A stretch of DNA of 50,322 bases from Terriglobus albidus. GTDB taxonomy: Bacteria; Acidobacteriota; Terriglobia; Terriglobales; Acidobacteriaceae. The notes below the pieces were generated by a model. It was not told the DNA's origin and made no database searches. It worked only from the letters and a program-made list of their open reading frames with translations. The DNA is taken from contig NZ_JAGTAS010000031.1 in assembly GCF_025685425.1 (NCBI RefSeq), positions 1 to 50,322 of the forward strand. Reading direction: 5' to 3'. Within the stretch, counting starts at the first letter, position 1. Each line of letters starts with the position of its first letter. Shown here one piece after another: positions 14,832-34,657 of the stretch. The position numbers and the translations under genes are program-made.

Positions 14832-14945
14832 AGAGCATTTTCCCTGTTGCCGGGTATCCCGGAAGGAACGTGCAGCGGCGTTTTCATTGCGGAAAACGCC
14901 CATAGATGCGGATCCTCTGGACTACACCTACAGGGAAAATCCTCT
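14832..14945 (+). repeat. MITE-like palindromic element, copy 1 (full)
   Basis: The left terminus is AGAGCATTTTCCCTGT and the right terminus is its near complement ACAGGGAAAATCCTCT. Between them is a hairpin GGCGTTTTC-ATTGCG-GAAAACGCC. T and A flank the element, so each outer boundary reads TA, as expected for a TA target duplication. The right boundary TAG, read on the minus strand, is the stop codon of the STAS-like gene at 14944. Confidence 0.85.
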
Positions 14946-15354
14946 ACCGCCTCTGCGCCTGCTCCAGTGCCAGATCAAATACATTTGGCTCCGTGCAGAC
15001 CCACATGATGCCATTCAACCCGGCAAATCGGCGCACGAACTCCGCCGTGATCTGGATGAGCTTGCTGCCGGTGAGCATTGTGATCGTTTTGAACCGGGAG
15101 CGATTTTGCGTGAACCAAGCCGACCATTCGCTGCTCACGTCGATTGAGGCGCCGCGCACATTCCGGGCATCGATAAAAAACTCGACTGCGTTGACCCCAG
15201 CCACCCATTCGTCGAGCACTTTAATGGGCGCGTCGAGCAGCTCCCCGGTATCGGTGCCCGTCAGGCGCATCAGGATCAGCGTTTCCGAAAGTTGCTCGAG
15301 CTCTACCGCGAAGTGTGCTCCTTCAAAGCTCGCCGATTTCAGTCCTGTTGCCAT
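14944..15354 (-). CDS. STAS-like small protein of unknown function
   Basis: The product is about 136 residues from the ATG at 15352-15354; in-frame ATGs at 15375 and 15390 are alternatives and none has a strong ribosome-binding site. The alternating beta/alpha pattern, with VEFFIDARNVRGASIDVSSE in the middle, resembles a STAS/SpoIIAA-like domain. No phosphorylatable Ser motif was confirmed, so this is a weak inference. It lies 86 bases downstream of the MEDS histidine kinase on the same strand and may be co-transcribed with it. Its stop codon TAG is supplied by the end of a MITE-like element, so the C-terminus may have been set by that insertion. Confidence 0.6.
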   Translation of the reverse strand: MATGLKSASFEGAHFAVELEQLSETLILMRLTGTDTGELLDAPIKVLDEWVAGVNAVEFFIDARNVRGASIDVSSEWSAWFTQNRSRFKTITMLTGSKLIQITAEFVRRFAGLNGIMWVCTEPNVFDLALEQAQRR

Positions 15355-15440
15355 ACCACTGATTCTCGTTCTCATTCCCCAAAGCTGCAACCGCAGACCG
15401 GCCGACGCACCAAGTCAGCCCCGGGTTGCCGGTATGTGCG

Positions 15441-16886
15441 CTAGCGCGTCGGGAGGGTGGAGGGGAAGAAGATGGTGATGACGGTGCCGTGGCGGGCGGG
15501 ATGCTCGGACGTGCGGACATTGATGTGGCCGTCGTGCTTGGCGACAATGCCGCTGACGACCCAGAGACCCAGGCCGGTGCCCTTTTCGGCTTTGGTGGTG
15601 AAGAAGGGTTCGAAGATGCGCGCGAGGTGGGTGCGCGGAATGCCGGAGCCGGTGTCGGCGATGGTAAGGCGGACGCCGGGCTGCAGGGTAGACCAACGGC
15701 GCGCGGGATGAAGCGAGATGATGATGCGGCCGTTTTGCGGTGTAGCTTCGATCGCATTGAGGAGCAGGTTGTCGATCACCTGGCGAAGCTCGTCACCGAA
15801 GCCGACAATGCGGAGCGCGGGAGTGATGCGGCTGGAGAGGTGGATACAGGTACGCGCGGCCTTTTCGCGGTAGATGGAGATCGACTCGTCGACCACGGTG
15901 GAGAGGTCGAGCTCGCGGGGGACGGTGCCGATGCGGTAGTAGGAGAGGCTCTGGCGGACGATGCGGGCAACGCGCGCGAGCTCGGAGTCGGCGGTTTCGA
16001 CGAGCGCGTGTGTGGTGGGGTCGAGCCCGGCGTTCTTGAGCAGGTAGAGGACATTGATGACGGAGGAGAGCGGATTATTGATCTCGTGCGCGAGCGAGGC
16101 CGCAAGCTGGCCGGCGGCGGCGAGCTTTTCGGTCTTGCGCAGGCGGTCTTCCTGCTGTTGGATCGTGCGGCGGGTCTGGTTGAGGAGCTCGGCCTTGTGC
16201 TGCAGGAGGCTGATGGCGCGATGGCGCTCGTCTTCAGTGAGGAGGGCGGTATAGGTTTCGGCGGGGATGACGTGGGAGTGCTCGGCGCAGACGAGACGGA
16301 AGGCCTCGTCGTGGCGGTCGTCGCCGAAGGTGGAGAGCGAGTAGCCGCAGAGGAGCGAGAAGTGGTGCGTGAGGGCGATCGCGTTCCAGAGGCGCTCGAG
16401 TTCAATGGCCGCGGTGGGGTTGGAGTCGGCCCAGAGGAGGGCGACCATCTCGCCGAAGGCGGCGACCGAGGGATTGGAAAAGCCGGTGGCGCGGGTGGCG
16501 CGGGTGATGACGTCGCCGATGACGGTGCGGAAGCGCTCGGGATCTGGGTGGCTGTCGACCATGAACTGGTCGAGGGTGTCGGCGGCGTCGAGTGCGACGT
16601 AACGTCCCTGGCGGCGGGCGAGCGCGAGGTCGATGCCAAGACTGGAAAGGCGGCCGGCAAGTGCGACGCGATGGGCTTCCGTGGCGATGACGATGCCGGC
16701 GCCTCCGGAGCCGAGCGCGGCGCCGATGGTGCGGGTGATGTTGTCGAGGAGTGCAGTGTCCTCCTCGTAGAACTGGACGGCGTGTGCGTGGGGAGCGTGG
16801 GGTGTGTGGGGTGCGTGCCTGGTCGAGGGGGCGAGCAGCGGCGCCGGTGGGGAGGAGTTGTTCAGGGGGATGTTGGCGGTGCTCAC
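15441..16886 (-). CDS. MEDS-domain sensor histidine kinase
   Basis: The product is 481 residues from a GTG at 16884-16886, chosen because GAGGAG lies six bases upstream. Residues about 36-205 match the MEDS sensory domain (HAVQFYEEDTALLDNI at its start), followed by a coiled-coil segment. The HisKA region has SLAHEINNPLSS with His267. The HATPase domain has the N box (DELRQVIDNLLLNAIEA), G1 (DTGSGIP) and the FFTTKAEKGTGLGL lid. No membrane segment is seen, so it is a soluble kinase. MEDS domains are proposed to sense small hydrocarbon derivatives. No response regulator is adjacent. The gene is very GC-rich, which opens long false frames on the other strand. Confidence 0.88.
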   Translation of the reverse strand: MSTANIPLNNSSPPAPLLAPSTRHAPHTPHAPHAHAVQFYEEDTALLDNITRTIGAALGSGGAGIVIATEAHRVALAGRLSSLGIDLALARRQGRYVALDAADTLDQFMVDSHPDPERFRTVIGDVITRATRATGFSNPSVAAFGEMVALLWADSNPTAAIELERLWNAIALTHHFSLLCGYSLSTFGDDRHDEAFRLVCAEHSHVIPAETYTALLTEDERHRAISLLQHKAELLNQTRRTIQQQEDRLRKTEKLAAAGQLAASLAHEINNPLSSVINVLYLLKNAGLDPTTHALVETADSELARVARIVRQSLSYYRIGTVPRELDLSTVVDESISIYREKAARTCIHLSSRITPALRIVGFGDELRQVIDNLLLNAIEATPQNGRIIISLHPARRWSTLQPGVRLTIADTGSGIPRTHLARIFEPFFTTKAEKGTGLGLWVVSGIVAKHDGHINVRTSEHPARHGTVITIFFPSTLPTR

Positions 16887-17098
16887 AGGGATCTCCTCGT
16901 ATCTATGATGCGGTTTGCGAGGAACACGGATGCAGTGAACCTGATGCGGCAATATTTTACAACGCTGGAGTCAACGAGTGCATTATCGCCAAACCACTCC
17001 GCGAGAAATCCTGCCGTTTATCCAAAGAAACCAGCGCGGATGCGCCACGATGAGGCGAAGCCTGTGATTGGGACCTGGCCTGCAAATCTCCTCAATGA

Positions 17099-18574
17099 TC
17101 ATCGAGAGAGAATCGCTTCCAGAACCGAAACGCCACGCTTTATCTCATTTGCATTACATCCTGCGAAGCCCAGAAACAACGCGGGCTTCTGCTCGTACTT
17201 GCTGACAAATGAGGAGATTGGACTTACTTCCAATCCCAGCTGTTTAGCCCGCCGTGTCAATCCCATCTCGGTGATGCGGGTCTTGATCCAGGCCACGGTA
17301 CACATCCCCGATTGCGCGTGCTCCACCTCGATCAGGCCGGAAAGACGCCGATTCGCTTCATCCGTAAGTAGCTGCGAACGCTCCGAGTAGACCTGCCTCA
17401 TCTTTCTAACGTGGCGGCCGAAGTGGCCTTCGTTGATAAATTCCGTCAGCACGGCCTGGTCTAACGTCGGAGCATGGCGATCCATGAAACTTCGCGCGAT
17501 TCTAAACGCTTCAACGAACCGTTCCGGCACAACGATGAACCCAATACGAAGAGCGTTGAAGAGCATCTTCGTAAATGTTCCAACATACATGACCGATCCA
17601 GATGGATCGAGACTGTGCAATGACGCAATCGGCTTCCCGGAATAACGATATTCCGCGTCGTATTCGTCTTCGATAATCCATGCCCCCGCACGCACGGCCC
17701 AGGAGAGAAGTTCGACCCGTCTCTCTGCCGACATCACGACACCGAGAGGGAATTGATTGGCTGGTGTTACATACACTGCACGGGCAGCGGGAGATAACTT
17801 GATCGCTCTTCCAACATCGATGCCGTCGCCATCCACTGGAATGGGAATCACACTCGCGCCGGCGTTCTGAAAGGCTCGAGAGGCTCCAGGGTACCCGGGA
17901 TCTTCCATCCATACTTCGTCGCCGGGATCGAGAAGCACCCGGGCCAAAAGATCCAACGCCTGTTGCGCGCCCGATGTCACGATGATCTGGTCCGCGGAAC
18001 AACGTACTCCGCGGGACTGGCCCACATATTCAGCGATGGCTCTTCGCAGCGGTGGATAACCACCTGCATCGCCTTGTCCATACAAAGAACGCGGCGCCTT
18101 GCGATAAACCCGCGCCGCGATCCGCGCCCACTGCTCGACTGGAAACAGGTCGATCGCCGGCTCGTAGCCCCGAAACGCCTTACCGACGGAATGCGAAGCG
18201 GGCCGGAGAAAGCTGGTCTTAAGAAGACCTTGCGTGCGCTTTGCGATCGTCGCTCTGGAGATGGCCTGCCGGGACGATCTTGGTTTCACCGGAGAGGTCA
18301 TCTCCCACCCTGGCGCCGGCAGGACAAAGGTGCCGGCGCTCACTTCCGACGAAACGTATCCCTCATCCTGAAGTTGCTGGAATGCTGCTACGACTGTGCC
18401 CCGGGCAAAACCGTATTGTGCTGCCAGGTTTCTCGTGGACGGCAAGCGTGCTCCGGACTTCAATCTGCCATCGATAATTGCGGAACGCAGCTCCGTATAG
18501 AGCCAGCGCCACATCTCCTGGTCATCCTTCCTCGGTTCTAAGACGAGGTCTTGAAATGTCTCTGTCTTCGGCAC
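17099..18574 (-). CDS. MocR-type GntR/aminotransferase regulator
   Basis: This 491-residue MocR-family regulator joins an N-terminal winged helix (about residues 20-88, with GARLPSTRNLAAQYG and GTVVAAFQQLQDEGYV) to a fold-type I aminotransferase domain. The PLP-anchoring lysine is Lys336 in GTFTKMLFNALRIG, and the cofactor-binding ED-x-YDAEYR lies near 303. Such proteins (PdxR, GabR, TauR) bind PLP and usually activate a divergent neighbour. Here the divergent neighbour is the AhpD-like/oxidoreductase cluster that starts at 18673. The regulator is therefore likely its controller, although links to pyridoxal or amine metabolism cannot be proven from sequence. Confidence 0.9.
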   Translation of the reverse strand: MPKTETFQDLVLEPRKDDQEMWRWLYTELRSAIIDGRLKSGARLPSTRNLAAQYGFARGTVVAAFQQLQDEGYVSSEVSAGTFVLPAPGWEMTSPVKPRSSRQAISRATIAKRTQGLLKTSFLRPASHSVGKAFRGYEPAIDLFPVEQWARIAARVYRKAPRSLYGQGDAGGYPPLRRAIAEYVGQSRGVRCSADQIIVTSGAQQALDLLARVLLDPGDEVWMEDPGYPGASRAFQNAGASVIPIPVDGDGIDVGRAIKLSPAARAVYVTPANQFPLGVVMSAERRVELLSWAVRAGAWIIEDEYDAEYRYSGKPIASLHSLDPSGSVMYVGTFTKMLFNALRIGFIVVPERFVEAFRIARSFMDRHAPTLDQAVLTEFINEGHFGRHVRKMRQVYSERSQLLTDEANRRLSGLIEVEHAQSGMCTVAWIKTRITEMGLTRRAKQLGLEVSPISSFVSKYEQKPALFLGFAGCNANEIKRGVSVLEAILSR

Positions 18575-18591
18575 GGTTTCACCCGCCTCTC

Positions 18592-18622
18592 ATGGACTAC
18601 TCATTCCTGCTCATTATGGACC
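18592..18622. promoter_or_regulatory. Direct repeat candidate MocR operator
   Basis: ATGGACT at 18592-18598 and ATGGACC at 18616-18622 are direct repeats spaced by 24 bases, about two helix turns, in the 98-base divergent spacer between the MocR gene and the AhpD-like gene. MocR-type regulators typically bind direct repeats. The site is suggestive only. Confidence 0.4.
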
Positions 18623-18672
18623 TTCTGGCTGTTCCATCCCAAGATAGCCTGACTGTGGAAGGAGAATACCTC

Positions 18673-19128
18673 TTGAAGATGAGATTGGAGCCGGTGAAGG
18701 TTTCGCCCGCTGCTTACCATGCGATGCTCGGATTAGAAAGCTTCGTAAGTAAGTCATCGAAGCTTGAGGAATCTCTTCTGGGACTCGTCAGGATGAGAGC
18801 CTCCCAGATCAATGGATGCGCCTTCTCCATGGATATGTATTCCAAAGACGCGCGTGTGAATGGTGAGACGGAGCAGCGTCTCTACACCTTGTCTGCATGG
18901 CGGGAAACGACGTTCTTTACCAACCGCGAACGCGCGGCTCTGGCGTGGACCGAAGCGTTAACGGTTATCACAGAAGGCCACGCGCCGGATGAGGTCTATG
19001 CGGAAGTCCGGAAGGAGTTTGGTGAAGAAGAACTGGTCAATCTCTCACTGGCGATCATCACGGTCAACGGGTGGAACCGGCTTGCGATAGGTTTCCGCAC
19101 GATCCCGGGTGAGTATCAGCCGCACTAA
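18673..19128 (+). CDS. Carboxymuconolactone decarboxylase (AhpD-like) protein 1
   Basis: The product is about 151 residues. AAGGAG at 18658-18663 points to the TTG at 18673 (spacing nine) or the ATG at 18679. The region upstream is open but lacks family residues. The central motif RASQINGCAFSMDMYSKDAR is characteristic of the family. The usual C-x-x-C of AhpD peroxidases appears here as C-x-x-S (GCAFSMDM), so the second redox cysteine is missing and thiol peroxidase activity is doubtful. The C-terminal RLAIGFRTIPG also fits the family. It is the first gene of a rightward cluster with the oxidoreductase 83 bases downstream. Confidence 0.82.
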   Translation: MKMRLEPVKVSPAAYHAMLGLESFVSKSSKLEESLLGLVRMRASQINGCAFSMDMYSKDARVNGETEQRLYTLSAWRETTFFTNRERAALAWTEALTVITEGHAPDEVYAEVRKEFGEEELVNLSLAIITVNGWNRLAIGFRTIPGEYQPH

Positions 19129-19211
19129 CTTCGATTTACCGAAGGGACAATTCCGATGAAACAAACATCGAACGACTACACAGGCAAGAAATCGACATGG
19201 GGAGGTGACCG

Positions 19212-20129
19212 ATGAAGGCGATTGTAGCTACAGATCAGGCAGCGGGAATGGCTGGGGTTAAGCTCGTGGAGCGCCCCGAGCCACAGGCGGCGATCAACGA
19301 TGTCGTTGTTCAGGTGTATGCGTCGGGATTCACCGGGGATGAGCTGTCGTGGCCCTCGACCTGGACCGATCGTACAGGCCGTGCCCGGACTCCTTCGATT
19401 CCGGGACACGAACTGGCCGGAGTGGTCACCGCTCTGGGCTATGGCACGACGGGGCTGTCGATTGGACAGCGGGTCTTCGGTCTCACCGACTGGTATCGCG
19501 ACGGTACGTTGGCGGAGTATGTAGCGGTTGAAGCACGCAACCTCGCGCCGCTTCCGGGTGACGTTGACTTCACGGTAGGCGCTGCCCTGGTGATGCCGGG
19601 CTTGACCGCGTGGCAGGGACTGTTCGATCACGGCCGCCTACAGGCGGGACAGCGCGTCCTCGTACACGGTGCGGCCGGCGTAGTCGGTTCCATGGCAACG
19701 CAGCTCGCGCGTGATGCGGGCGCCTACGTCATCGGCACCGGGCGTGCTGCCGGCCGTCAGACCGCCCTCGACTTCGGCGCGCAGGAGTTCGTTGACCTCG
19801 ACAAGGACACTCTGGAAGGCATCGGTGAAGTCGATCTGGTGTTCGATGTCATCGGCGGCGAAATCGCGAAGCGGTCTGTGGGCGTGATTCGCGCCGGAGG
19901 AACGTTCGTGAGCATCACCGGCCCGGCCGAGGCACAACCCGCCAACGGCCGAGCGGTCGACTTTGTTGTCGAGTCCGATCGTGCGCAGCTGACTGAGATT
20001 GTCCGGCGGCTCCGGGATGGTCGGCTGCGGACGAACATTGGGAATGTCTCGACTCTCGATGAGGCCGTGGCTGCGTTTAATCGGACGGAGAGAAGCAAAG
20101 GGAAGACGATCATCCGCTCTCGCCCGTAA
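19212..20129 (+). CDS. NADP-dependent zinc-free quinone oxidoreductase
   Basis: This 305-residue medium-chain dehydrogenase/reductase has an N-terminal catalytic fold with IPGHELAGVV and a Rossmann fold with the nucleotide-binding HGAAGVVGSMATQLARDAGA near 152-171. No structural zinc cysteines are visible, so it belongs to the zinc-independent quinone-reductase branch. It transfers hydride from NADPH to quinones or enones. GGGGAGG precedes the start. It lies in the MocR-linked cluster with nitroreductase and AhpD-like partners, consistent with a role in detoxifying electrophiles. A decayed partial copy of its 3' end follows at 20179. Confidence 0.9.
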   Translation: MKAIVATDQAAGMAGVKLVERPEPQAAINDVVVQVYASGFTGDELSWPSTWTDRTGRARTPSIPGHELAGVVTALGYGTTGLSIGQRVFGLTDWYRDGTLAEYVAVEARNLAPLPGDVDFTVGAALVMPGLTAWQGLFDHGRLQAGQRVLVHGAAGVVGSMATQLARDAGAYVIGTGRAAGRQTALDFGAQEFVDLDKDTLEGIGEVDLVFDVIGGEIAKRSVGVIRAGGTFVSITGPAEAQPANGRAVDFVVESDRAQLTEIVRRLRDGRLRTNIGNVSTLDEAVAAFNRTERSKGKTIIRSRP

Positions 20130-20178
20130 GGGATCGAGATCGACATTCCCACCATATCCAGCGTTTGATCGCCCGAAC

Positions 20179-20356
20179 GCGTGAAGCCGTCCGCAGGACT
20201 GCTTCGCGCCGGAGGAACGCTGGTGACCATCACCCGCCTATAAGAGGCGCGCAGCCAGCTGCGTTCTGACGGCAGACATTGTTGTCGAGTCCGATCGTTC
20301 TAACTAACTGAGATCGCCCGGCGTGTGCGTGACGGACGGCTGCGAACAAGGCATGA
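20179..20356 (+). pseudogene. Decayed duplicate of the oxidoreductase 3' region
   Basis: This stretch aligns with about 19867-20045 of the preceding gene. Blocks include CGCGCCGGAGGAACG, GTTGTCGAGTCCGATCGT, AACTGAGAT and CGGCTGCG. Indels and stops break the frame, and only the C-terminal part of the domain is represented. It has no start codon or ribosome-binding site. It is best read as a decayed remnant of a second oxidoreductase gene from the same cluster. Confidence 0.8.
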
Positions 20357-20413
20357 GCGACACGCGAAAACACTCTTGTATTTCAACCTATTCCTTCAAC
20401 GAACGGAGTCATC

Positions 20414-21031
20414 ATGACCAACGCCGTCATCGAATGTATCTTGAGCCGCAGGGCGACCAAGTACTACGACCCTAACGCCAGCTTGAGCGACGACCAGATC
20501 CGCGAACTGGTGCGAATCGGCACCAGCGCGCCGACGTCCTTCCACATGCAGAACTGGCGCTTCATCGCCGTTCGCACGCCTGAAGCCAAGGCTCGGCTGA
20601 GTCCGATTGCCTGGAATCAGCCTCCAATCAAGGACGCGGCCGTTACCTTCATCGTCTGTGGCCAGCTGGCCGATTCCAGCGTCATACCCGAGCGCCTGGC
20701 GCCGGTGGTGGAAGCCGGCATCATGCCCGAGACAATGGTGCCGGAGTGGGAGATTCCCGCACGGGATCTGTATAGGAATTATCCGCAGCGCCAGCGTGAC
20801 GAGGCAGTACGAACCGCGGCTATCGGCGCGACGGCGATCATCTATGCAGCCCGCTCGCTTGGCCTGGGTTCGACGCCGATGATCGGTTTCGATGCCGATG
20901 CAGTGGCTCGGGAGTTCGCACTGGCCGAGAACGAAGTGCCGGTCCTGCTGTTGTCCATTGGGACCGAGCGTCCGGGAAATTGGGCGCAGAAGCCGCGTCG
21001 TCCCGTCGCCGATGTGCTGGATTTCGTATAA
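20414..21031 (+). CDS. Nitroreductase-family protein
   Basis: This 205-residue protein has the nitroreductase fold. The FMN-phosphate segment SRRATKYYDPN lies at 11-21, SAPTSFHMQNWRFIAV near 38-53, and a C-terminal part has AARSLGLGSTPMIGF near 147 and the family ending VADVLDF. Such enzymes reduce nitroaromatics, quinones or related electrophiles with NAD(P)H, usually as dimers with FMN. A start at 20414 follows a short spacer with GGAG. It precedes the second AhpD-like gene by 32 bases, so they are probably co-transcribed. Length is usual for the family. Confidence 0.9.
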   Translation: MTNAVIECILSRRATKYYDPNASLSDDQIRELVRIGTSAPTSFHMQNWRFIAVRTPEAKARLSPIAWNQPPIKDAAVTFIVCGQLADSSVIPERLAPVVEAGIMPETMVPEWEIPARDLYRNYPQRQRDEAVRTAAIGATAIIYAARSLGLGSTPMIGFDADAVAREFALAENEVPVLLLSIGTERPGNWAQKPRRPVADVLDFV

Positions 21032-21063
21032 CCCAGGTGAAAACAATAGCGCGCGGAGATCAG

Positions 21064-21609
21064 ATGCCAAGAGCAGAAGCTTTAAAACCGGAACAAGTGC
21101 CGCCCGATTCGAAACCAACCCTCGATGCGTTCACCAGGAACATCGGGTTCACCCCAAATATGATGGCGACTTTCGCGCTTAGCCCGATTGCGTTCAACTC
21201 ATGGGCAGCGCTATTCGGCTCCTTGAGCAAGGCGCTTGATGTGAAGACCCGTGACAGTATCGGTCTCACTGTCTCCGAGTTGAATGGATGCAACTACTGC
21301 CTGACGGTTCACAGCTTTACGGCCCAGCATATGGCCCGCTTGAGCGCCGATGAAATCATTCTCGCTCGAAAGGGCCATGCCAGCGACCCTAAGCGAGACG
21401 CAGCCATCCAGTTTGCACACAAAGTTATCGAGACCCGCGGCAAAGTCAGTGACGCCGATCTGAAAGCTGTCCGCGATGCGGGCTACACGGATGCAAACGT
21501 CATGGAGATTATCGCGCTGGTGGCCATGTACTCCCTGACGAACTTTTTCAATAACGTATTCGATCCCGAGAGGGACTTTCCCCCAGTTGCGCCGGCCGGC
21601 TCGATCTGA
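21064..21609 (+). CDS. Peroxidase-related AhpD-like protein 2
   Basis: This 181-residue member of the carboxymuconolactone decarboxylase/peroxidase-related family has an intact C-x-x-C pair in SELNGCNYCLTVHSF, followed by His and the expected helix. Unlike the first AhpD-like protein of this cluster, it keeps both redox cysteines, so thiol-dependent peroxide reduction is plausible. GGAG lies close upstream of the ATG at 21064. The frame continues upstream to 20980 but overlaps the nitroreductase end, so the later start is preferred. It ends the cluster and is followed by repeat DNA. Confidence 0.87.
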   Translation: MPRAEALKPEQVPPDSKPTLDAFTRNIGFTPNMMATFALSPIAFNSWAALFGSLSKALDVKTRDSIGLTVSELNGCNYCLTVHSFTAQHMARLSADEIILARKGHASDPKRDAAIQFAHKVIETRGKVSDADLKAVRDAGYTDANVMEIIALVAMYSLTNFFNNVFDPERDFPPVAPAGSI

Positions 21610-21613
21610 ACTC

Positions 21614-22200
21614 TTGGGCGTTTTTCCCTGTTGGTGAGTATCCGGAAGGGGCATCTATGCGGCGTGTTTTTGCGGAAAACGCCGCATAGATACGGATGCT
21701 CTGGACCTACAGGGGAAATGCTCCATCCCTTCATCTTGGGTAGGGCAGACGTCTCCAGAGATGCTCTACAACTTGAGGTCTGCTGAGACTCAACTATTGT
21801 GAAACCCTCCGCACAGCGCATCCCGTTTCGCACCGCAGGTGCGAATGTTTCGCTTAAGGGGACGGCTTCAGCCGTCCCGTCAGACGAGCCACAACGGCGG
21901 GGCTTTAGAGCATTTTCCCTGTTGCTGGGTATCCCGGAATAAGAGTGCAGCGGCGTTTTCATTGCGGAAAACGCCCATAGATGCGGAAACCCTACTCTAC
22001 ATCCACAGGGAAAATGCTCCAGCCCCTGAGGATATCGCCATGACACGGTACCTCAGCGGCTAAAGCCGCGATCATTTGCAGCAATTTCGGCACGGCTGAA
22101 GCCGTGCCCTTAAGCAAGGCATTCGCGCTACGCGCGAACCGTCGTTCTTCTCAACCCTTGCTTCATCTTCCGAAATACTCAGCAACAGGGAAAATTCTCT
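21614..22200. repeat. Repeat-rich spacer with MITE-like and type A elements
   Basis: A divergent MITE-like copy lies at 21614-21724 and a full copy at 21907-22020 (termini AGAGCATTTTCCCTGT and ACAGGGAAAATGCTCC, inner stem at 21952-21975). Type A units are at 21827-21878 (- orientation; stems TTCGCACC/GGTGCGAA and GGGACGGCT/AGCCGTCCC) and 22089-22138 (+; GGCACGGCT/AGCCGTGCC and TTCGCGC/GCGCGAA). A MITE end fragment at about 22167-22201 finishes with the stop codon of the next gene. No coding region is supported in the roughly 590 bases. Confidence 0.8.
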
Positions 22201-23635
22201 AATAAACTTCGATGTCGGTCCTGGAAGCGAGCCGCCTGTCCGGCGCGCTGAGAAACTCGTAGATGTACACATCTCCCTCGAGGGAGTTCAGCAGCGGCCC
22301 ATGCATCCGCTTCATGAACAATAGCCGTTGGCTGTTCAGAAAATAGTGGTGGATCAGGTCGTTATAGATTGGCCTGCATGCGTCATCGAGTCCACCTGCT
22401 CCGAGCAGTACCGGTACGGTGCTGTAGTACGGCTTTTTAGTTGCTGGATGGATCGGCTTTACCGGCCACTCGCGGCACACGGATCCGAAGACGTCATTCA
22501 CATGAAAGCCTGCCAGCCACGGCATCACCTTTTCCTGTTGTGCAATCAGGTCGGGATCTTCATAGGCCATTTTGTCCGAGCAGTAGACGGAGATGCGCAT
22601 TCCCGAAAGTCCTCCGTTATTGGTGAATACACCGTCGAAGTAATCCTTCACGTATCGCTCGGCGTCCCCACTGACCATGTCGAGGACGATTTGCGGCAGC
22701 TGCTTGATCCCGTCGTAGTCCTCCAGTTTGCTGTGCAGGATGCTCAGCAGTTCACTGCGTCCATAGCTCAAATCAACATCCCGGCCATCCTTGAGCCGGT
22801 AACGGATCGAAAAGCTTTTGCCCTCTAGAGAGCTGAAGTACGCGTGAAACCGAGGCGTGAGCTTCCTCTCTCCACTGTCCAGCACCGTTGTCAGAGCTTC
22901 ATCGAAGTTCGCTAATTCCTGCTCATCGATGTTCACGAATTCCGGAAGAGGTGAATCGAGGATGAGCGACCGGATGTGTTCGGGATATTTCTGCAGGACG
23001 GCCATCATCAGGCCGCCGCTGTAAGAAATCCCCATTAGGTTGATCGAGTCGATCTTGAGCATTCGGCGCAAATCTTCGATGTCAGCTGCGCTTTCATCCG
23101 TGTTGTATGCGGAAAGATCGATACCCTGTCCGATCAGTTTCTGGCGGCACGCCCGCACCGCTGCAATCCGTGCGGCGTCGGGCGAGCGATGTTCGAGATA
23201 TGCCTTCTGGACCTCCACGCCTTCGCCATCGCACTCCAGGTTTGGCAGCGCGAAGTGCGTACCTCGTTGTTCGAAAGCGATATAGTCCCGGTCGGCCAGT
23301 AACGATCGGCGGGAGATGGAAGTCACAGGATGCAGGGAACTGACACCGGGGCCGCCGCCCGTGTACAGCACCGGATCGGGGCGCCTGGCAGTGTTCTTGC
23401 TCTTTACGTAGATGAATGGAAGCTTGATGGACGGGCCTTCAGGACGTTCACGGTTTTCGGCCACAACAAGATAGCCGCAGCGGGCTTCGTATCCTTCGCC
23501 AGGCACATAGAGGCAGGGACTATCTTCAACACGCGGCAATGCCGCTTTCTGCGCATGGCACGTCAGGGCCGCACAAGCCAGCAAGAGAAGTCCGCACAGC
23601 CTTCCTATCATTCTCATGCGCGGCTTAGACCGCAT
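22199..23635 (-). CDS. Secreted alpha/beta hydrolase (TAP-like)
   Basis: The product is up to 478 residues; an ATG at 23617 or 23611 could be the real start, since the signal peptide begins at MRMIGRLCGLLLLACAALTC. It resembles the TAP/prolyl-aminopeptidase-like hydrolases, with an oxyanion loop YTGGGPGVSS, nucleophile region LMGISYSGG (Ser204), acid in GGLDDACRP and His in RMHGPLLN. The second elbow glycine of G-x-S-x-G is replaced by Ser206, which is unusual. Two Cys pairs suggest disulfides, fitting export. Its TAG stop lies at the boundary of a MITE-like fragment. The substrate is unknown. Confidence 0.82.
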   Translation of the reverse strand: MRSKPRMRMIGRLCGLLLLACAALTCHAQKAALPRVEDSPCLYVPGEGYEARCGYLVVAENRERPEGPSIKLPFIYVKSKNTARRPDPVLYTGGGPGVSSLHPVTSISRRSLLADRDYIAFEQRGTHFALPNLECDGEGVEVQKAYLEHRSPDAARIAAVRACRQKLIGQGIDLSAYNTDESAADIEDLRRMLKIDSINLMGISYSGGLMMAVLQKYPEHIRSLILDSPLPEFVNIDEQELANFDEALTTVLDSGERKLTPRFHAYFSSLEGKSFSIRYRLKDGRDVDLSYGRSELLSILHSKLEDYDGIKQLPQIVLDMVSGDAERYVKDYFDGVFTNNGGLSGMRISVYCSDKMAYEDPDLIAQQEKVMPWLAGFHVNDVFGSVCREWPVKPIHPATKKPYYSTVPVLLGAGGLDDACRPIYNDLIHHYFLNSQRLLFMKRMHGPLLNSLEGDVYIYEFLSAPDRRLASRTDIEVY

Positions 23636-27398: not shown

Positions 27399-27407
27399 CG
27401 CAGCCTC

Positions 27408-27770: not shown

Positions 27771-27792
27771 AAGGCCTTGTTACAGCAAGCCT

Positions 27793-27821
27793 AGAGTAAA
27801 ACAGTAATGAGGGGAAGTCAA
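27793..27821 (-). promoter_or_regulatory. Promoter of the padR-ADOP operon
   Basis: On the minus strand, TTGACT (27821-27816) and TACTCT (27798-27793) are spaced by 17 bases. They lie 22 bases upstream of the padR start. The spacer carries direct repeats TTACTG and TTTACTC that may be the PadR site. Confidence 0.55.
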
Positions 27822-27822
27822 A

Positions 27823-27877
27823 TACCCAGAGATACGAGATGCGGATCCTCTGGGTACACCTGCAGTGAAAATGATCT
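27823..27877 (+). repeat. MITE-like element fragment
   Basis: The sequence ACCCAGAGATACGAGATGCG and the following CTGCAGTGAAAATGATCT match the right half of the MITE-like element in a degenerate form. It lies in the divergent spacer between the padR gene and the SnoaL-like gene. Confidence 0.55.
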
Positions 27878-27936
27878 AGCCGGATACTTAGCATATCGTT
27901 CACTACCAACACCGCATCTCATTGGCTGGAGGCCGC

Positions 27937-28329: not shown

Positions 28330-28648
28330 CGAGAAGCGCGCTTTTCTGAAGCTCGCAAAATATCCCATTGACGGGCCGATGATGCCTAGGGCGTATCGAA
28401 AATTCAGTTGATCTGACACAGGATGACTGAACTGGTGGGAGCAGCGGGGTCCCCAACAGCTTTGCTGGATGGGTGTTCAGCGGGCGTCAGCCCTCTGATA
28501 AAGGCGTAACAATCTGGGCCCTGACAATACCGATTGCCGGCTTCCGCAGTTTGCCGGCCGCAAGCCGGCTTCACGGACACACGAGTTTTCCCATAGAAGT
28601 TCGAGTGGTGTATGATTCCTTCCCATAGAACTTCGAGTGGAGGAGCCG
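28330..28648. other. Non-coding spacer with degenerate repeats
   Basis: It holds a hairpin GCCGGCTT ... AAGCCGGC at 28536-28569 and degenerate pieces of the type B repeats near 28433-28500. It ends with two 21-base direct repeats (described separately). No gene is supported here. Confidence 0.5.
28588..28640 (+). promoter_or_regulatory. Direct repeats and candidate promoter before the truncated padR
   Basis: TTCCCATAGAAGTTCGAGTGG at 28588-28608 is repeated with one change at 28620-28640, a period of 32 bases. TATGAT at 28611-28616 between them could be a -10 element. The repeats probably bind a regulator, perhaps one encoded elsewhere, since the local padR is truncated. Confidence 0.5.
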
Positions 28649-28771
28649 ATGCACCATAGCAGCGAGCCTCAGAACGAGATGCTCAAGGGCATCCTCGATA
28701 TGTGGATGCTGCGGACTCTCGTCCGGAGTAATACGCACAAGGACGCGATCGCCAAAGAAGGAGATGTGTAA
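28649..28771 (+). pseudogene. Truncated padR (40 codons) overlapping the ADOP start
   Basis: An ATG preceded by GGAGG opens 40 codons, MHHSSEPQNEMLKGILDMW and onward, matching the first helix of PadR proteins (compare LKGTLDLLVLRTL). The product stops at 28769-28771, well short of the usual 105-120 residues, so the winged helix is missing. The TAA stop shares its last base with the ATG of the following ADOP gene (TAATG). It probably no longer represses, but its translation may couple to the ADOP gene as a leader peptide. Confidence 0.75.
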
Positions 28772-31407
28772 TGAGCTGGCTGAGATTCCTACATCGCAAG
28801 CGCTCCGATGCCGAGTTGCAGGACGAGATCGAGGCTTTTCTGACGGAAGAGGCGGCCGAGAATGAGGCCCGCGGCATGTCACCGGCAGAAGCCCGACGCA
28901 GGGCCCGGTTGAAGTTCGGCAATGCGCAAAAGGTGCGCGAGTCGCTATGGAGGCAGAACACGCCCCAACGATTGACCGCTATCGCTCGCGACGTAAGATA
29001 TGCCTTTCGCACATTGCGCCGCACGCCGGGATTTTCGTTCATTGCGATTGTGGTCATGGCCTTGTGCCTGGGCGCTGCCACGTCGCTTTTCACCGTTGTG
29101 CGTTCGGTGTTGCTGAGGCCGCTGCCTTTTCGCGAGCCCGCGCGGCTGGTGATGGTGTACGAACACTTCCGGGGAGGGGAGCTCAGCTACCATCCGGTTG
29201 CGCCGGCCGACTTCTACGACTGGCGCTCGAAGACCCAGGGCTTTGAAGACATGGCAATCATGCGTTCCGCCGGGTACAACCTCACTGGTGTGGGCAACGA
29301 ATTGCCGGAGTCGGTCTACGCAGAGGCAGGTTCCTCGAACCTGTTTTCACTGCTGGGAGTGCAGCCGGCATTGGGCCGGAACTTTGCGGACGCGGACGAT
29401 CATCGCGGCAGCACCGTCGTAATGTTGACCTGGAGCGTGTTCGAGAGGCGGTTTGCAGGCGACGCGAAGATTGTGGGCAACCAGATTCACCTTGACGGCA
29501 AACCGTATACAGTAGCCGGCGTGTTGCCTTCGTGGTTCACGTATCCCGATGCCAGAATTCAATTGTGGGTTCCCTACAAGGCCGATGCCAGCGCTGAGAT
29601 GCTTCAGCATCACGACTGGCATGGGAGCCAGGTGGTGGCAAGGCTCCGCCCCGATGTAAGCCTGGCCAACGCAATCGCGCAGGTCGGCGCCATACAGTAC
29701 CAGAATCATCTGCAGTATCCACACGATCCGGTGGCTGAAGAGGTGGTTTCGCGCTCGCTGAATGAGGATCTCGCCGGAGATGTGAAGAAGCCGCTGACGT
29801 TGATGCTCTCCGCAGTTGGCTGCATGCTGCTGATCGGCTGCCTCAATGTTGCCAACCTGCTGGTGGCGCGGGGCGCGGCACGGCAGAAGGAGGTGGCGAT
29901 CCGAAGCGCTCTCGGCGCGCAGCGGGCCACCCTGATTCGCGAGCAGATGGCCGAGAGTCTTTTGATTTGCGCAGCCGGCGGCATCAGCGGGATTCTGCTG
30001 TCATTGGGAGCTACCGGGTGGCTGGCAAAGACGTGGAAGGACCTGCCCACCGCGCAGAGCATTCACATCGATGGCGCGGTGATTGCGTTTGCCGGCGCGC
30101 TCCTGTTCGCCGCGGCGCTGATTGCAGGCTTGCTGCCCGCGCTTTCCACCACAGGTAAGTCGATGCTGACGGCCCTGCAAACCTCGGTCCGGACCGGGTC
30201 GAGCAGTGTTTCGCGCACCGTGCTCAGAAAGTCGCTGCTTACGGCGGAGATTGGCATCACCGTGGTGCTGCTGGTGGCCGCCGGGCTGCTGCTCAAAAGT
30301 TTTATGCAATTGCGCGCTGCTGATGTCGGCTGCGTCGTAGACAACATGCTCACCTTGCAATACAACCTGCCCGGCAAGAAGTACGACACGCCTGAGAAAC
30401 AAAACGCCTTCAACGAAGCGCTGCTGGCGCGAGTGAGAGCGATGCCGGGAGTTCGCGGCGCTGCCTTGGGAACCACGGTTCCGGGAACAGGATACTGGGG
30501 TACTGACGAATTCACGGTGAAGGAGCATCCTCCGCTTAATGCGGGCGAGCACCTGCCCGACGCGATGACACGCTGGGCCGATCCAGGCTACTTCAGCGCG
30601 CTCGGAATTCCGCTGGTGAGCGGACGATTCTTTACCAGCGACGAACGTGGCGCGCGCTCGTACAAGGTGATTGTGAGCCGTCAGCTCGTTCAGCAATATT
30701 TCGCAGGCGAAGATCCCATCGGAAAACATTTGCATATTCCAGGGCGCGCTCACGATGGAGCGCCGAACCTGGTGGATTGGGAGATTGTCGGCGTCGTCGG
30801 CGACATCCTGTACCAGGTCGGCAAGGCGCCGAAGGCAACAGTGTATTTCCCCATCCTTGAGGGCCGGGGCGGTGCGACACTCGCGGTTCACACGGCAACC
30901 GATGCATTGCAATTCTCGGTGCCGCTGCAAAAGCAGATTGCGTCGCTCGATCCGGAACTTCCGGTCTCAGATGTGCTTACCATGAACCAGATCATTGGCG
31001 CGTCCCTGGTGAATGCGAGCCTGAGCGCAACCCTTGTGCTGACGTTTGCTGTTCTATCGCTGATTCTTGCTTCGGTGGGATTGTACGGTGTGCTTTCGTA
31101 CCTTGCTACGCAGCGAACCTCGGAACTGGGAATCCGCATGGCGCTCGGCGCGCAACGAGATCAGCTCCTGCAGTTGATGCTGATGGATGGCTTGCGGCCG
31201 GCGCTGTTCGGGCTCGGACTTGGTCTGTTGATGAGCTTCGTGGCGACACGCATCTTCCAGTCGATGCTCTTCGAAACGAAGCCTCTCGATCCGGCGGTTC
31301 TCTGCGGCGTGATTGCGACGCTGCTGGCGGTTGCGGTTCTGGCCTGCCTGGCTCCCGCATGGCGTGCTTCCCGGTTAGATCCAATGAAGGCGCTCCGAAC
31401 GGAGTAG
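28771..31407 (+). CDS. ADOP-family permease 2 (MacB/FtsX-type)
   Basis: This 878-residue protein has an N-terminal segment (DAELQDEIEAFLTEEAAENE, then SPAEARRRARLKFGN), followed by a first membrane segment in PGFSFIAIVVMALCLGAATS. A middle FtsX part carries RQKEVAIRSALGAQRATLIR and a C-terminal one QRTSELGIRMALGAQRDQ. This is the full-length ADOP form. The upstream AAGGAG lies inside the truncated padR, whose stop overlaps this start. No ATPase is adjacent. The stop codon TAG is followed by AGCGGTTCCC, with GCTCTA 20 bases on, so it may end in a MITE-like remnant. Confidence 0.92.
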   Translation: MSWLRFLHRKRSDAELQDEIEAFLTEEAAENEARGMSPAEARRRARLKFGNAQKVRESLWRQNTPQRLTAIARDVRYAFRTLRRTPGFSFIAIVVMALCLGAATSLFTVVRSVLLRPLPFREPARLVMVYEHFRGGELSYHPVAPADFYDWRSKTQGFEDMAIMRSAGYNLTGVGNELPESVYAEAGSSNLFSLLGVQPALGRNFADADDHRGSTVVMLTWSVFERRFAGDAKIVGNQIHLDGKPYTVAGVLPSWFTYPDARIQLWVPYKADASAEMLQHHDWHGSQVVARLRPDVSLANAIAQVGAIQYQNHLQYPHDPVAEEVVSRSLNEDLAGDVKKPLTLMLSAVGCMLLIGCLNVANLLVARGAARQKEVAIRSALGAQRATLIREQMAESLLICAAGGISGILLSLGATGWLAKTWKDLPTAQSIHIDGAVIAFAGALLFAAALIAGLLPALSTTGKSMLTALQTSVRTGSSSVSRTVLRKSLLTAEIGITVVLLVAAGLLLKSFMQLRAADVGCVVDNMLTLQYNLPGKKYDTPEKQNAFNEALLARVRAMPGVRGAALGTTVPGTGYWGTDEFTVKEHPPLNAGEHLPDAMTRWADPGYFSALGIPLVSGRFFTSDERGARSYKVIVSRQLVQQYFAGEDPIGKHLHIPGRAHDGAPNLVDWEIVGVVGDILYQVGKAPKATVYFPILEGRGGATLAVHTATDALQFSVPLQKQIASLDPELPVSDVLTMNQIIGASLVNASLSATLVLTFAVLSLILASVGLYGVLSYLATQRTSELGIRMALGAQRDQLLQLMLMDGLRPALFGLGLGLLMSFVATRIFQSMLFETKPLDPAVLCGVIATLLAVAVLACLAPAWRASRLDPMKALRTE

Positions 31408-31603
31408 AGCGGTTCCCATAGGCTGCTCTATAGAGATTCGTCGTCCACATCCGGACGCCACTGCCCGTCTCCGGGCACTCCCGCCAAGCTGCACTGGCAA
31501 TTTGCGCTGAATTTGCAGGAGTTAGCGCGTTTTCGAGTTGGCATTCGAATTGCCTTTCCTCCTCTTAGACAACGAGCGCCCCAGGAAGCTGGAGTAAGAG
31601 CCC

Positions 31604-34036
31604 ATGTTCACGCTGTTTCACGATTTCTCCTTTGCTCGCAGGCAGATCACCAGGCACTATACCTATGCCCTTACCGCAATTCTCTCGATGGCACTTGGTA
31701 TCGGGGCTACCACGGCCGTTTACAGCGTGCTTTATGGGGTTTTGATCGACCCCTATCCCTACCGTGACGCTGATCGCATTGCGTTTGTCACCGTCCAGAA
31801 CAAGCAGGGCTTTGGCAGAGACATTCCCTTAACGCTTTCGGAGCTCTACCAACTGCGTCAGGCCAGATCGGTGGAAGACGCATTCGCGCAGAACGACGCC
31901 AGCATGGTCGCGACGGACGGCGATATTCCGCAGTCGGTCAAGGTGCTGGAGATGACAGGCAATGGGCTTCAATTCCTGGGGGCACCACCGGTAATGGGCC
32001 GGATCTTTACTGCTTCTGAAGCGCCGGCAGGTGTAGCGCCTCCCCAGGTGGCGGTCATCAGTTATCTGTTCTGGAAGAGCCACTTCGCATCGAATCCAAA
32101 CGTGATCGGGAAGGATCTCGATCTCAATCACCGGAAGTACACCATCGTCGGGGTGGTTGGCCCACGCTTTACCTGGCACGACTCCGACGTGTATGTACCC
32201 ATGCCGGCCGGGATCGATCCGAAGAGCCGCTTTCAAACGCTGATACGACTTCAGTCAGGTATCTCGACCGCTGCGGCGGGCGGGGAACTGGCCGGCTTCG
32301 TACAGCAGGTCAGTCGCACGGAACCAACACTCCTGCCGCGTGATGGCTATCGCCTCAAGGTGGATACCCTGAACGATTGGATCCTCGGACAATTCAAAGG
32401 CACGCTTTTTGTGCTGTTCGTTGCAGTCGCACTGCTGCTTCTCATTGGCTGCGGCAACGTCTCCATCTTGATGCTCGCCCGTGGAACCGCCCGTTCGCAA
32501 GAGATCGCAACCCGGGTTGCTCTCGGCGCGTCTCGCCGCCGCATCATGCAGCAACTGCTCACGGAGGCAGTCATCCTGTCGGTTGCGGGCGGAGTGCTGG
32601 GCGTGGTTTTCGCGCATCTCTCGATACGCTTGATCACTGGTTTGATTCCGGAGTATTCCATTCCGCATGAAGTCGTCATCACGCTGAATACGCCGGTTCT
32701 TCTGTTCAGCACCGCCGTTTCGATCGCTATCGGAATCCTGGCTGGTATCTCTCCGGCATTGCAGTTTTCGAATCCCCACATCAGTCAAATCATCCAGTCG
32801 GCGGGCTCGCGCAGCACGGCTTCTCATGGCGCCCGGACGCGGTCCGTGCTTATTGTTGGACAGACGGCACTCACCGTTCTCATGCTCGCCGGCGCAGGCG
32901 CCGCCATGCGCAACTTCCTGCAGGCCTACGCCGCGCAGCTTGGTTTCGACCCACATCAGGTCCTCACGCTTCGAGTCAATTTGCCGGACAACTCGTTCCC
33001 GGGGTGGCAGGAACGGGTGAATTACTACGATGCGGTGATTGAAAAGATCAAAACCACCCCCGAAGTCACGGCCGCCTCAGTCTCTGCAGTAGGCATTCCA
33101 CCGGACAGCAACTGGGTCCAGCCCGTACAGATCGTGGGAAGTGCACCCGACCCAAGTCGCACAACCGGGGTGAATCTGATCGACTCCGATTACTTCGCAG
33201 TACTTCATATCCCGCTGCTCGAGGGACGAGTTTTGACGCGCGAAGAAGTTCTTCACGGCGCGCATCTGGCGGTGATCAGCAAGACCTTTGCCCAGCATTA
33301 CTTCCCTGGCTCCGATCCCATCGGGAAACAGATCATCCCTGAGCAACTTTCGCGCGTCCCGCGCAATCTGTTGCAGGCACCCAACATCAGCCAGCCCTTC
33401 CAGGTAGTCGGCGTCGTCGGCGACGTGCGCAACGCGGGATTGCATCGGCCCATTCTCCCTCAGGCCTATATCCCTTCTTCTATTCTCGTCGGTCAGGGTG
33501 CAAGTATTCTGATTCGCACCACTGCTAATAATCCCGCCACGCTGCTTCATGCCATCAGCGCCAATATCCGCACGCTCAATCAAAACCAGGCCGTCAGCTT
33601 TGTCTACTCGATGGATGAGTATCTTTCCACGTTCGTCTGGTCACACGAACGCTTCATTGCGGCTCTCTTCTCGGTGTTTTCGGCCATTGCACTGGCCCTG
33701 GCTGCTATCGGCCTGGCGAGCGTTGTCGCGTACTCTGTCGAGCAGCGAACCCGCGAGATCGGGATTCGTTCGGCCCTGGGCGCACCGCGATTGAGCGTTT
33801 TATTGCTCACGATGACCTCAACAGCTCGCACCACAGGGGTTGGGCTCGTTCTTGGCATTCTGCTCAGCATCGGGCTGAGCGATGCCGTGCATCGCTGGAC
33901 CCAGAGCAGTTTGCGCGATGTTTCGGTGCTCGCCGTTATCGCGGGGATTTTCTTGTTTGCTTCGGCCATCGCTTGTATATTGCCGGCACGGCGAGCAATC
34001 CTTATTGATCCGGTACGCGCGTTGAGGGACAACTAG
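31604..34036 (+). CDS. ADOP-family permease 3, short form
   Basis: This 810-residue protein lacks the N-terminal soluble segment of the other long ADOPs and starts directly before the first membrane segment (MFTLFHDFSFARRQITRHYT, then AILSMALGIGATTAVYSVL). It retains both MacB core and FtsX units, with RSQEIATRVALGASRRRIM in the first and QRTREIGIRSALGAPRLS in the second. No padR precedes it. It lies 196 bases downstream of ADOP 2 on the same strand and may be transcribed with it. Its TAG stop is also the first three bases of a MITE-like end (TAGAGCATTTTCCCTGTAGG). Confidence 0.9.
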   Translation: MFTLFHDFSFARRQITRHYTYALTAILSMALGIGATTAVYSVLYGVLIDPYPYRDADRIAFVTVQNKQGFGRDIPLTLSELYQLRQARSVEDAFAQNDASMVATDGDIPQSVKVLEMTGNGLQFLGAPPVMGRIFTASEAPAGVAPPQVAVISYLFWKSHFASNPNVIGKDLDLNHRKYTIVGVVGPRFTWHDSDVYVPMPAGIDPKSRFQTLIRLQSGISTAAAGGELAGFVQQVSRTEPTLLPRDGYRLKVDTLNDWILGQFKGTLFVLFVAVALLLLIGCGNVSILMLARGTARSQEIATRVALGASRRRIMQQLLTEAVILSVAGGVLGVVFAHLSIRLITGLIPEYSIPHEVVITLNTPVLLFSTAVSIAIGILAGISPALQFSNPHISQIIQSAGSRSTASHGARTRSVLIVGQTALTVLMLAGAGAAMRNFLQAYAAQLGFDPHQVLTLRVNLPDNSFPGWQERVNYYDAVIEKIKTTPEVTAASVSAVGIPPDSNWVQPVQIVGSAPDPSRTTGVNLIDSDYFAVLHIPLLEGRVLTREEVLHGAHLAVISKTFAQHYFPGSDPIGKQIIPEQLSRVPRNLLQAPNISQPFQVVGVVGDVRNAGLHRPILPQAYIPSSILVGQGASILIRTTANNPATLLHAISANIRTLNQNQAVSFVYSMDEYLSTFVWSHERFIAALFSVFSAIALALAAIGLASVVAYSVEQRTREIGIRSALGAPRLSVLLLTMTSTARTTGVGLVLGILLSIGLSDAVHRWTQSSLRDVSVLAVIAGIFLFASAIACILPARRAILIDPVRALRDN

Positions 34037-34657
34037 AGCATTTTCCCTGTAGGTCTAGAACAAGGTTTCGTACAGTGAGGCAAATATCGGTACAGAGAAT
34101 CAAGCGCTGAAGGCGCGTTCTATACCAGCCTGGGGCAACGCCCCAGGGTTTGTCGCCCCCAGACGTTAAAGGGCTGAAGGCCCGCCCTATAGAAAGGTCT
34201 TCAAGCCGGCCGTATCGTTTCGATACCAGCATTTTCTCTGTAGGTGTGGTGTAGGGCTTCCGCATCTATGGGCGTTTTCCGCAATGAAAACGCCGCTGCA
34301 CGCCTCTTCCGGGATACCCAGCAACAGGGAAAATGCTCTAGGCGTACAGCGGTCTCAGGAACCGTTTCGTTTGTGACGATTAGGGATTATAGATCGGGCC
34401 TTCAGCCCTCTTACCGTTTTCTATCTCCGTACCTGGGGCGTTGCCCCAGGCTGGTATAGATCGCGCCTTCAGCGCTCAACACGTCTTTCTTGCTCAATAG
34501 AAATAGGGCTTAAAAGCAATTTCTCGCGATGCGTTTTACGACACAGCTGAAGCCGTGCCCTTAAGCAAGACATTCGCGCTACGCGCGAACCACCACTCCC
34601 GATCTCGATGTTTGAAATTCACATTGACATCAGCAGAAAATCCACTACCATTCGGTT
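34034..34657. repeat. Repeat-rich spacer: MITE-like, type D and type A elements
   Basis: A MITE-like end fragment is at 34034-34055. A type D unit (+) at 34101-34193 has GCGCTGAAGGCGC, the hairpin CCTGGGGC-AAC-GCCCCAGG at 34129-34147 and GGGCTGAAGGCCC. A full MITE-like copy in reverse is at 34228-34339. A type D unit (-) is at 34387-34478. A type A unit is at about 34545-34589, with stem 2 at 34573-34589. No coding region is supported in about 620 bases. Confidence 0.8.
34624..34651 (+). promoter_or_regulatory. Promoter of the ArsR gene, leaderless layout
   Basis: TTGACA at 34624-34629 and TACCAT at 34646-34651 are spaced by 16 bases. Their geometry puts the transcription start about seven bases downstream, on the GTG start codon at 34658. 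No ribosome-binding site lies between. Confidence 0.65.

What the first reader, a model, noticed from the sequence alone, without database searches (positions are those of the whole stretch)
14832..34055. MITE-like element whose terminal TAG doubles as the stop codon of the neighbouring gene
The palindromic element begins TAGAGCATTTTCCC, with TA outside and G inside. In three places that TAG is exactly a stop codon: STAS-like gene (minus strand, 14944-14946, full copy), secreted hydrolase (minus strand, 22199-22201, fragment) and ADOP 3 (plus strand, 34034-34036, fragment). Weaker cases are ADOP 2 (31405-31407, TAGAGC with GCTCTA nearby) and the VOC gene (46611-46613, TAGAGCA). An element that targets TA and starts with G would regenerate TAG when it lands in the TA of a stop codon, so the gene would keep its product. 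This would be a neat way to insert next to genes without damage. The alternative is that the insertion truncated longer genes.
Basis: partly seen in the sequence, partly recalled or inferred. Interest (0 to 1): 0.8.

Follow-up and report, generated by a model that had tools for sequence, protein, structure and literature searches.

The report
Mobile repeat that preserves stop codons
A 115-base mobile DNA repeat, present in hundreds of copies in a soil bacterium, often inserts into the stop codon of a gene and rebuilds that stop codon with its own first base, so the gene's protein is left unchanged.

Summary
The element is a ~116-bp MITE with termini TA-GAGCATTTTCCC (751 ends at <=3 mismatches; 35 for the reversed control). 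It targets TA, preferring CTAG and CTAA/TTAG, and duplicates TA: 11 of 16 empty sites checked in a sister species show the single TA. In 850 kb, 29 of 149 ends are exactly a called gene's stop. Stop codons are 5.4% of non-coding TA sites (10.8% weighted by context), yet hold 29 of 87 non-coding insertions. Truncation is rejected: in 19 of 21 comparisons with an element-free orthologue the protein ends at the same position (other genes 517 of 567). SecA is a clean case. But stop codons are hit no more than TA sites in the next 25 bases once base context is allowed for. So the likely mechanism is insertion or survival at gene 3' ends plus a YTAR-like target, with the stop codon a free landing site because the element starts with G. 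Some IS630-family elements of related bacteria share the ends; no such partner was found in this genome. Precedent: GTAG REP termini were reported to supply TAG stops.

The parts
14831..14946 (-). Full element copy, both ends TAG (one end TAGAGGATTTTCCC)
   Evidence: profile hit; sequence; RNA fold -53.9 kcal/mol, z -5.6
14944..14946 (-).
   Evidence: a G015 relative without the element ends at the same codon with TAG
21622..21725 (-). Degenerate element copy
   Evidence: profile hit E 8.6e-17
21906..22021 (-). Full element copy, one end TGGAGC
22164..22201 (+). Solo right-end fragment; its TAG (22199-22201, minus) is the stop codon of the alpha/beta-hydrolase gene 22199-23635 (-)
   Evidence: no orthologue found for its C-terminus
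34034..34069 (+). Solo left-end fragment; its TAG (34034-34036) is the stop codon of the MacB/FtsX permease gene 31604-34036 (+)
   Evidence: a G002 relative ends at the same codon with TAA and no element
34226..34340 (+). Full element copy, left end decayed
   Evidence: RNA fold -48.5 kcal/mol, z -4.1
49959..50073 (+). Full element copy
31405..31430 (+). Possible short relic TAGAGC...GCTCTA at the stop of the gene 28771-31407 (unproven)
   Evidence: no profile hit
47550..48667 (-). IS630-family (DDE_3) insertion sequence with different terminal repeats (TTGATTCCTGC...): not this element's mobiliser

Best explanation
It is a high-copy non-autonomous transposable element (MITE), most likely derived from and moved by an IS630-family DDE transposase. 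It inserts at TA, preferring CTAG and CTAA/TTAG, and duplicates the TA. Because its first base on both strands is G, an insertion at the TA of a TAA or TAG stop codon rebuilds TAG at once, so the upstream protein keeps its C-terminus. Insertions accumulate at gene 3' ends, and the stop codon simply belongs to that permissive zone. Shown here: the TA duplication, the symmetric target preference, the excess at stop codons, conserved C-termini and end similarity to some IS630 elements. Inferred: the identity of the mobiliser, and that the 3'-end bias reflects survival of harmless insertions rather than active targeting.
For: 29 of 149 ends are exact stops. In-frame open stretches 37 vs 5 and 8 of 115, and 16 vs 3 and 6 of 49 in G002. 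29 of 87 non-coding insertions at stop TAs; expected 5.4% (P 8e-16) or 10.8% by context (P 2e-8). Clean empty sites with a single TA: blocks 2, 3, 10, 16; blocks 16, 22, 23. SecA: the filled genome and the empty G002 and G015 sites all end ...HGAEA-TAG, G017 ...HGAEV-TAA; the SEC-C motif ends 3 residues before the stop. C-termini: 19 of 21 element-free comparisons end at the same position, control 517 of 567. Flanks of 91 insertions: left -1 base C 34, A 14, T 12, G 2, unknown 29; right +1 base A 24, G 20, T 6, C 5, unknown 36, as for a symmetric DDE target. A search for inverted TA-ended repeats found a pair at 12 of 33 DDE_3 loci, 3 of them (L234, L238, L239) with GAGCA-type ends; L279, in the genus, has GAGCATTTTC at both ends. 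L234 matches the element's left end at 22 of 28 positions on both its ends, reached by 0 of 46,081 background TA sites.
Against: No IS630 copy with these ends was found in the own genome: its only substantial DDE_3 copy has other ends. The compared IS630 ends were picked because they carry the motif; most DDE_3 loci do not. In 2 of 21 comparisons the element-free relative is longer (2 and 14 residues). 5 of 16 empty sites checked lack a TA at the junction (blocks 6, 11, 15, 17, 21). Relatives have TGA at 5 of 21 such sites against 11 of 178 controls (Fisher P 0.016, post hoc), more than expected if all ancestors had TAA/TAG.
Confidence: 0.85

Rival explanations
1. Insertions truncated longer genes, and the first in-frame TAG in the element became a new stop.
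For: 2 of 21 relatives are longer, by 2 and 14 residues; one further site, outside those 21, shows 600 vs 615 bases (block 6).
Against: 19 of 21 end at the same position; the other frames are hardly represented; C-terminal domains run to the end in SecA and the M13 peptidase.
Confidence: 0.03
2. The transposition machinery actively seeks stop codons or gene 3' ends (for example through supercoiling, terminators or terminating ribosomes), rather than inserting freely and being sieved by selection.
For: Rate per 1000 TA sites: stop 82, next 25 bases 41, 26-200 bases 12-18, further 5, coding 0.2.
Against: Stop codons are not preferred over the next 25 bases once context is allowed for (expected share 0.674, observed 29 of 43). 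Selection against harmful insertions gives the same gradient.
Confidence: 0.2
3. It is a REP-like element moved by a Y1 tyrosine transposase (RAYT or TIRYT), as described for Acidobacteria.
For: Palindromic, high copy, arrays of 2-4 units, sits at gene 3' ends; GTAG REPs also supply TAG stops (PMC3733652). 10 Y1 matches in the genome.
Against: No Y1 locus is flanked on both sides within 1.5 kb; 2 of 10 have one copy nearby. No GTAG tag (G is the rarest -1 base, 7 of 127). The target is symmetric with a TA duplication; the ends match some IS630 elements.
Confidence: 0.08
4. Chance coincidence of a frequent TAG end with ORF ends.
For: TAG is the commonest stop in the sampled genes (212 of 562).
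Against: P 8e-16 against random non-coding TA sites and 2e-8 with context.
Confidence: 0.01

Closest known systems
RUP / ERIC / Correia type MITEs (TA-targeting)
   Same: Roughly 100-170 bp, terminal inverted repeats, TA target duplication; RUP is 107 bp, intergenic and linked to IS630-Spn1 by its ends (PMC2229807, section 8 read; sizes and TA duplication of RU-1/RU-2 from the listing and passages of PMC2759123).
   Different: Different sequence. In one RU-1 case the insertion appears to have removed the normal stop and extended the protein (PMC2759123, passages); here the stop is rebuilt. That RU-1 is ERIC is recalled.
GTAG REPs (repetitive extragenic palindromes with RAYT)
   Same: Lie at gene 3' ends, and their termini often provide the TAG stop of flanking ORFs (PMC3733652, sections 15 and 16 read).
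   Different: 20-40 bp, GTAG tag at one end, Y1 transposase; this element is about 116 bp, two-ended, TA-duplicating, without a GTAG tag.
MITEPsy1 of Pseudomonas syringae
   Same: 100-bp MITE that inserts at CTAG or YTAA (PMC3189936, passages), much the same target bases.
   Different: Four-base target duplication and IS5-like ends (ISPsy2); no stop-codon role seen in the passages.
IS630-family insertion sequences of the same bacterial family (loci L234, L238, L239, L279)
   Same: Outer ends TA-GAGCATTTTC or close to it (L239 reads GAGCATTTTT and GAGCATTTCT, one end of L234 GAGCAGTTTC); AGGTGTATAGT in L234 resembles the element's AGGTGTAGTGT.
   Different: They carry a DDE_3 transposase (~1.03 kb); the element has none, and no such copy was found in its own genome.

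Membership tests
Bacterial MITE | 70-300 bp, terminal inverted repeats, no coding capacity (definition as in PMC3733652 passage) | tested here: met
   53 paired copies, 42 of them 115-116 bp; outer stem of 14 pairs
Bacterial MITE | Target duplication with empty sites in relatives | tested here: met
   Single TA in G002 at 11 of 16 empty sites checked by eye; further cases
IS630-derived MITE | TA duplication with preference for CTAG | tested here: met
   Rate per 1000 non-coding sites: CTAG 31, CTAA/TTAG 20, ATAA/TTAT 9, others 0-5, from the 40 insertions with both flanks known; the IS630 CTAG preference itself is recalled
IS630-derived MITE | Ends shared with an IS630 element | tested here: met
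   L234, L238, L239, L279 ends; all in other genomes
IS630-derived MITE | Matching full-length IS in the same genome | tested here: not met
   Own DDE_3 copy has other ends; a second hit is a 41-position piece at a contig end
GTAG REP | GTAG at one terminus | tested here: not met
   Base before TA at 127 ends: C 62, T 37, A 21, G 7
GTAG REP / TIRYT repeat | Copies flank a Y1 transposase gene on both sides | tested here: not met
   0 of 10 Y1 loci, 1.5 kb each side; 2 of 10 have one copy
Rfam RNA family | Match of the element to a known RNA family at the gathering score | tested here: not met
   Three Acido-Lenti-1 hits in the window, all outside the element copies

The most novel reading that the evidence does not exclude
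The terminal G after TA is a selected trait: by making TAA/TAG stop codons safe landing sites (352 such sites in 850 kb), the element gains targets that would otherwise damage proteins, has come to supply the stop codon of about 1 gene in 20 of its host, and places a cloverleaf RNA directly behind those stops that shapes mRNA 3' ends.
Probability: 0.2. Interest if true: 0.7.

Novelty: new variant of a known kind. Interest (0 to 1): 0.52.

Why it matters
It shows, with empty sites and orthologues, how a mobile repeat can occupy stop codons without changing proteins. In the sample 29 of 562 complete gene calls end in an element TAG (9 of the 41 stretches were picked because ends were listed there, so this is an upper-side figure). 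It gives a testable rule: TA-inserting elements whose first base is A or G should tolerate TAA/TAG stop codons, those starting with C or T should not. It also warns annotators that such C-termini are mostly real, not truncated.

Tried and rejected
Window IS630 (47550-48667) as mobiliser: its ends match the element's left end at only 7-8 of 28 positions. IS4/IS5-type DDE_Tnp_1: no match in G000 or G015. Y1 transposases: no flanking pairs. Full-length IS with these ends in the sampled DNA: end pairs 500-3000 bases apart exist, but I did not scan their contents for transposases. Covariation for the cloverleaf: copies too alike, 2 of 36 pairs with a double change. Bryocella copy L307 as a possible parent: it is only another 116-bp copy. 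Exact 54-base pattern in genome contigs: 0 hits; the 25-base pattern gave 33 stretches. Literature searches for a stop-rebuilding TA-inserting MITE listed no such report beyond the REP sentence; I opened only four papers (PMC2229807, PMC2759123, PMC3189936, PMC3733652) and the library is open-access only. Hydrolase C-terminus: no orthologue found. Element at both stops of a convergent gene pair: none found.
Full report
Observation. The three main coordinates are exact: the element's terminal TAG is the stop codon at 14944-14946 (-), 22199-22201 (-) and 34034-34036 (+). The element is about 116 bp: of 53 paired copies in the sample 27 are 116 and 15 are 115 bases long. Full copies in the window lie at 14831-14946, 21906-22021, 34226-34340 and 49959-50073, a degenerate one at 21622-21725 and end fragments at 22164-22201 and 34034-34069. 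Two copies fold as a four-way cloverleaf more stable than shuffles (z -4.1 and -5.6); the consensus of 20 copies has an outer stem of 14 pairs, but copies are too alike for covariation to test this (2 of 36 pairs).

Genome scale. The window is contig C35 of a 6.1-Mb genome. Ends at <=3 mismatches number 751 against 35 for the reversed pattern. Of 19 genomes of the genus including this one, four carry hundreds of ends (G000 603, G002 437, G012 366, G015 368, at <=2 mismatches) and the other 15 at most four, near the control (at most 3). In the bacterial family 46 of 398 genomes searched have at least one end at <=1 mismatch; outside the genus the most is 18. Exact 25-base matches in named genomes are in Granulicella mallensis X5P3, two Acidobacteria bins and Bryocella elongata, whose copy is full length. 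The genus is therefore probably Granulicella (inference from these names). Some copies form arrays of 2-4 units with a period near 114-120.

Stop codons. I sampled 850,322 bases (41 stretches including the window; 9 of them picked for listed ends), called genes with a home-made codon model (562 complete genes) and found 149 ends. For 70 of them a gene stop on the same strand lies within 400 bases; for 29 the distance is exactly zero, and in the printed range -60 to +120 no other distance occurs more than twice. Genes called on joined stretches give 31, and 12 in 800 kb of the sister species G002. Without any gene caller, open stretches of 100 codons or more run into the TAG in frame at 37 of 115 TAG-ends and out of frame at 5 and 8; in G002 the counts are 16, 3 and 6 of 49. 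Among all TAGs of the same DNA the in-frame class is the rarest (764, against 2408 and 1124 of 10,349), so the bias belongs to the element.

Null models. Collapsed to 91 insertions, 4 lie inside genes and 29 of the other 87 are at stop-codon TAs. Stop codons make up 5.4% of non-coding TA sites (P 8e-16) or 10.8% when sites are weighted by their neighbouring bases using non-stop insertions only (P 2e-8). The rate per 1000 TA sites falls from 82 at stops to 41 in the next 25 bases, 12-18 up to 200 bases, 5 further away and 0.2 in coding DNA. Between stops and the next 25 bases the split is what base context predicts (expected 0.674, observed 29 of 43). Hence the stop codon is treated like the harmless DNA behind it; no stop-specific targeting is needed. 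Convergent and tandem gene gaps are hit more than divergent ones (20, 50 and 13 insertions, with 8 at stretch edges, for 937, 2945 and 1818 non-coding TA sites).

Empty sites and C-termini. Against G002 (long aligned blocks mostly 82-92% identical), 16 of 22 own C39 insertion blocks with both flanks aligned (of 32) and 6 of 13 G002 blocks (of 19) are empty, with a gap under 40 bases, in the other genome. Read by eye, 11 of those 16 have a single TA at the junction; 5 (blocks 6, 11, 15, 17, 21) do not, two of them with TG or CA in its place. A four-unit array also sits in a single TA (block 16). For secA (SecA domains, with the SEC-C motif ending at residue 991 of 994) the filled genome reads GCC-TAG-element while G015 and G002 read GCC-TAG and GCA-TAG, and G017 GTC-TAA, with no element. 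For stop-coincident genes, 18 of 27 own and 9 of 12 G002 genes have a relative in the fetched DNA of the other species (best match, >=55% identity). Of these 27 comparisons 25 end at the same position; 6 are dropped because the relative also has the element at or near the stop; of the remaining 21, 19 end at the same position and 2 relatives are longer, by 2 and 14 residues. Other genes end alike, within one residue, in 253 of 279 and 264 of 288; these two directions share most pairs. Against the more distant G017 5 of 6 end alike within one residue; the sixth, at 76% identity, is 9 residues shorter there. In the window, the 14944 gene ends at the same codon in an element-free G015 relative, and the 34036 gene ends at the same codon with TAA in a G002 relative that is not in the same neighbourhood; the hydrolase could not be tested. 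Block 6 (600 against 615 bases), outside the 27 because its end holds a deletion, is a possible small truncation.

Mobiliser. Flanking bases are alike on both sides: C, then A or T, before the left TA; A or G after the right TA (unknown for 29 and 36 of 91). CTAG and CTAA/TTAG sites are used most. This symmetry and the TA duplication suit a DDE transposase of the IS630 type. A search for TA-ended inverted repeats found a pair at 12 of 33 DDE_3 loci, three with GAGCA-type ends (L234, L238, L239); L279, within the genus, has TA-GAGCATTTTC at both ends, and L280, in the element-bearing G015, TA-GAGCA only. L234 matches the element's left end at 22 of 28 positions on both of its ends, reached by 0 of 46,081 background TA sites; the loci compared there were picked for the motif. 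The only substantial DDE_3 copy in the own genome lies in the window and has unrelated ends, so the active partner is lost, unassembled or elsewhere. Y1 transposases are present (10 matches) but none is flanked by copies on both sides.

Known work. [quoted passage not shown]). RUP is an IS630-linked MITE (PMC2229807, section 8 and passages). For RU-1 an insertion appears to have removed a stop codon (PMC2759123, passages). MITEPsy1 uses CTAG or YTAA targets (PMC3189936, passages). I found no paper showing stop-rebuilding by a TA-inserting MITE in the listings, in an open-access library only.

Unexplained. Relatives carry TGA at 5 of 21 element-free sites; among ordinary orthologues with TAA or TAG in the own genome G002 has TGA in 11 of 178 (Fisher P 0.016, post hoc, and the 21 mix both directions while the 178 are one-way).

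Noticed in passing
window 34103-34147, 34432-34476, 50119-50163: Three matches to the Rfam family Acido-Lenti-1 (RF01687) that are also near-identical dispersed repeats (98%), close to element copies; this candidate RNA may itself be a mobile repeat.
   Followed up: partly
window 46830-49840, IS at 47550-48667: An IS630-family element (1.1 kb, ends TTGATTCCTGC) lies between two ORFs (46830-47591 and 48758-49840) that by eye look like halves of one secreted protein; G002 has two DDE_3 loci with similar ends.
   Followed up: partly
L004, L016, L026, L028 (array junctions): Tandem arrays have variant inner junctions (TGCGATTAGAGC, TGCGGTTAGAGC, TGCGACTAGAGC) instead of GCTCTAGAGC, as if arrays descend from one dimer and move or grow as units.
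   Followed up: no
L086 (strand coordinate 6489); own C28:142918-143009: Very short internally deleted relics (about 25-36 bases) that keep element ends at a stop codon.
   Followed up: no
G056 (L101 and other places): A genome of another family of the class has 8 listed copies of a related end motif TAGAGCATTTTCACCG.
   Followed up: no
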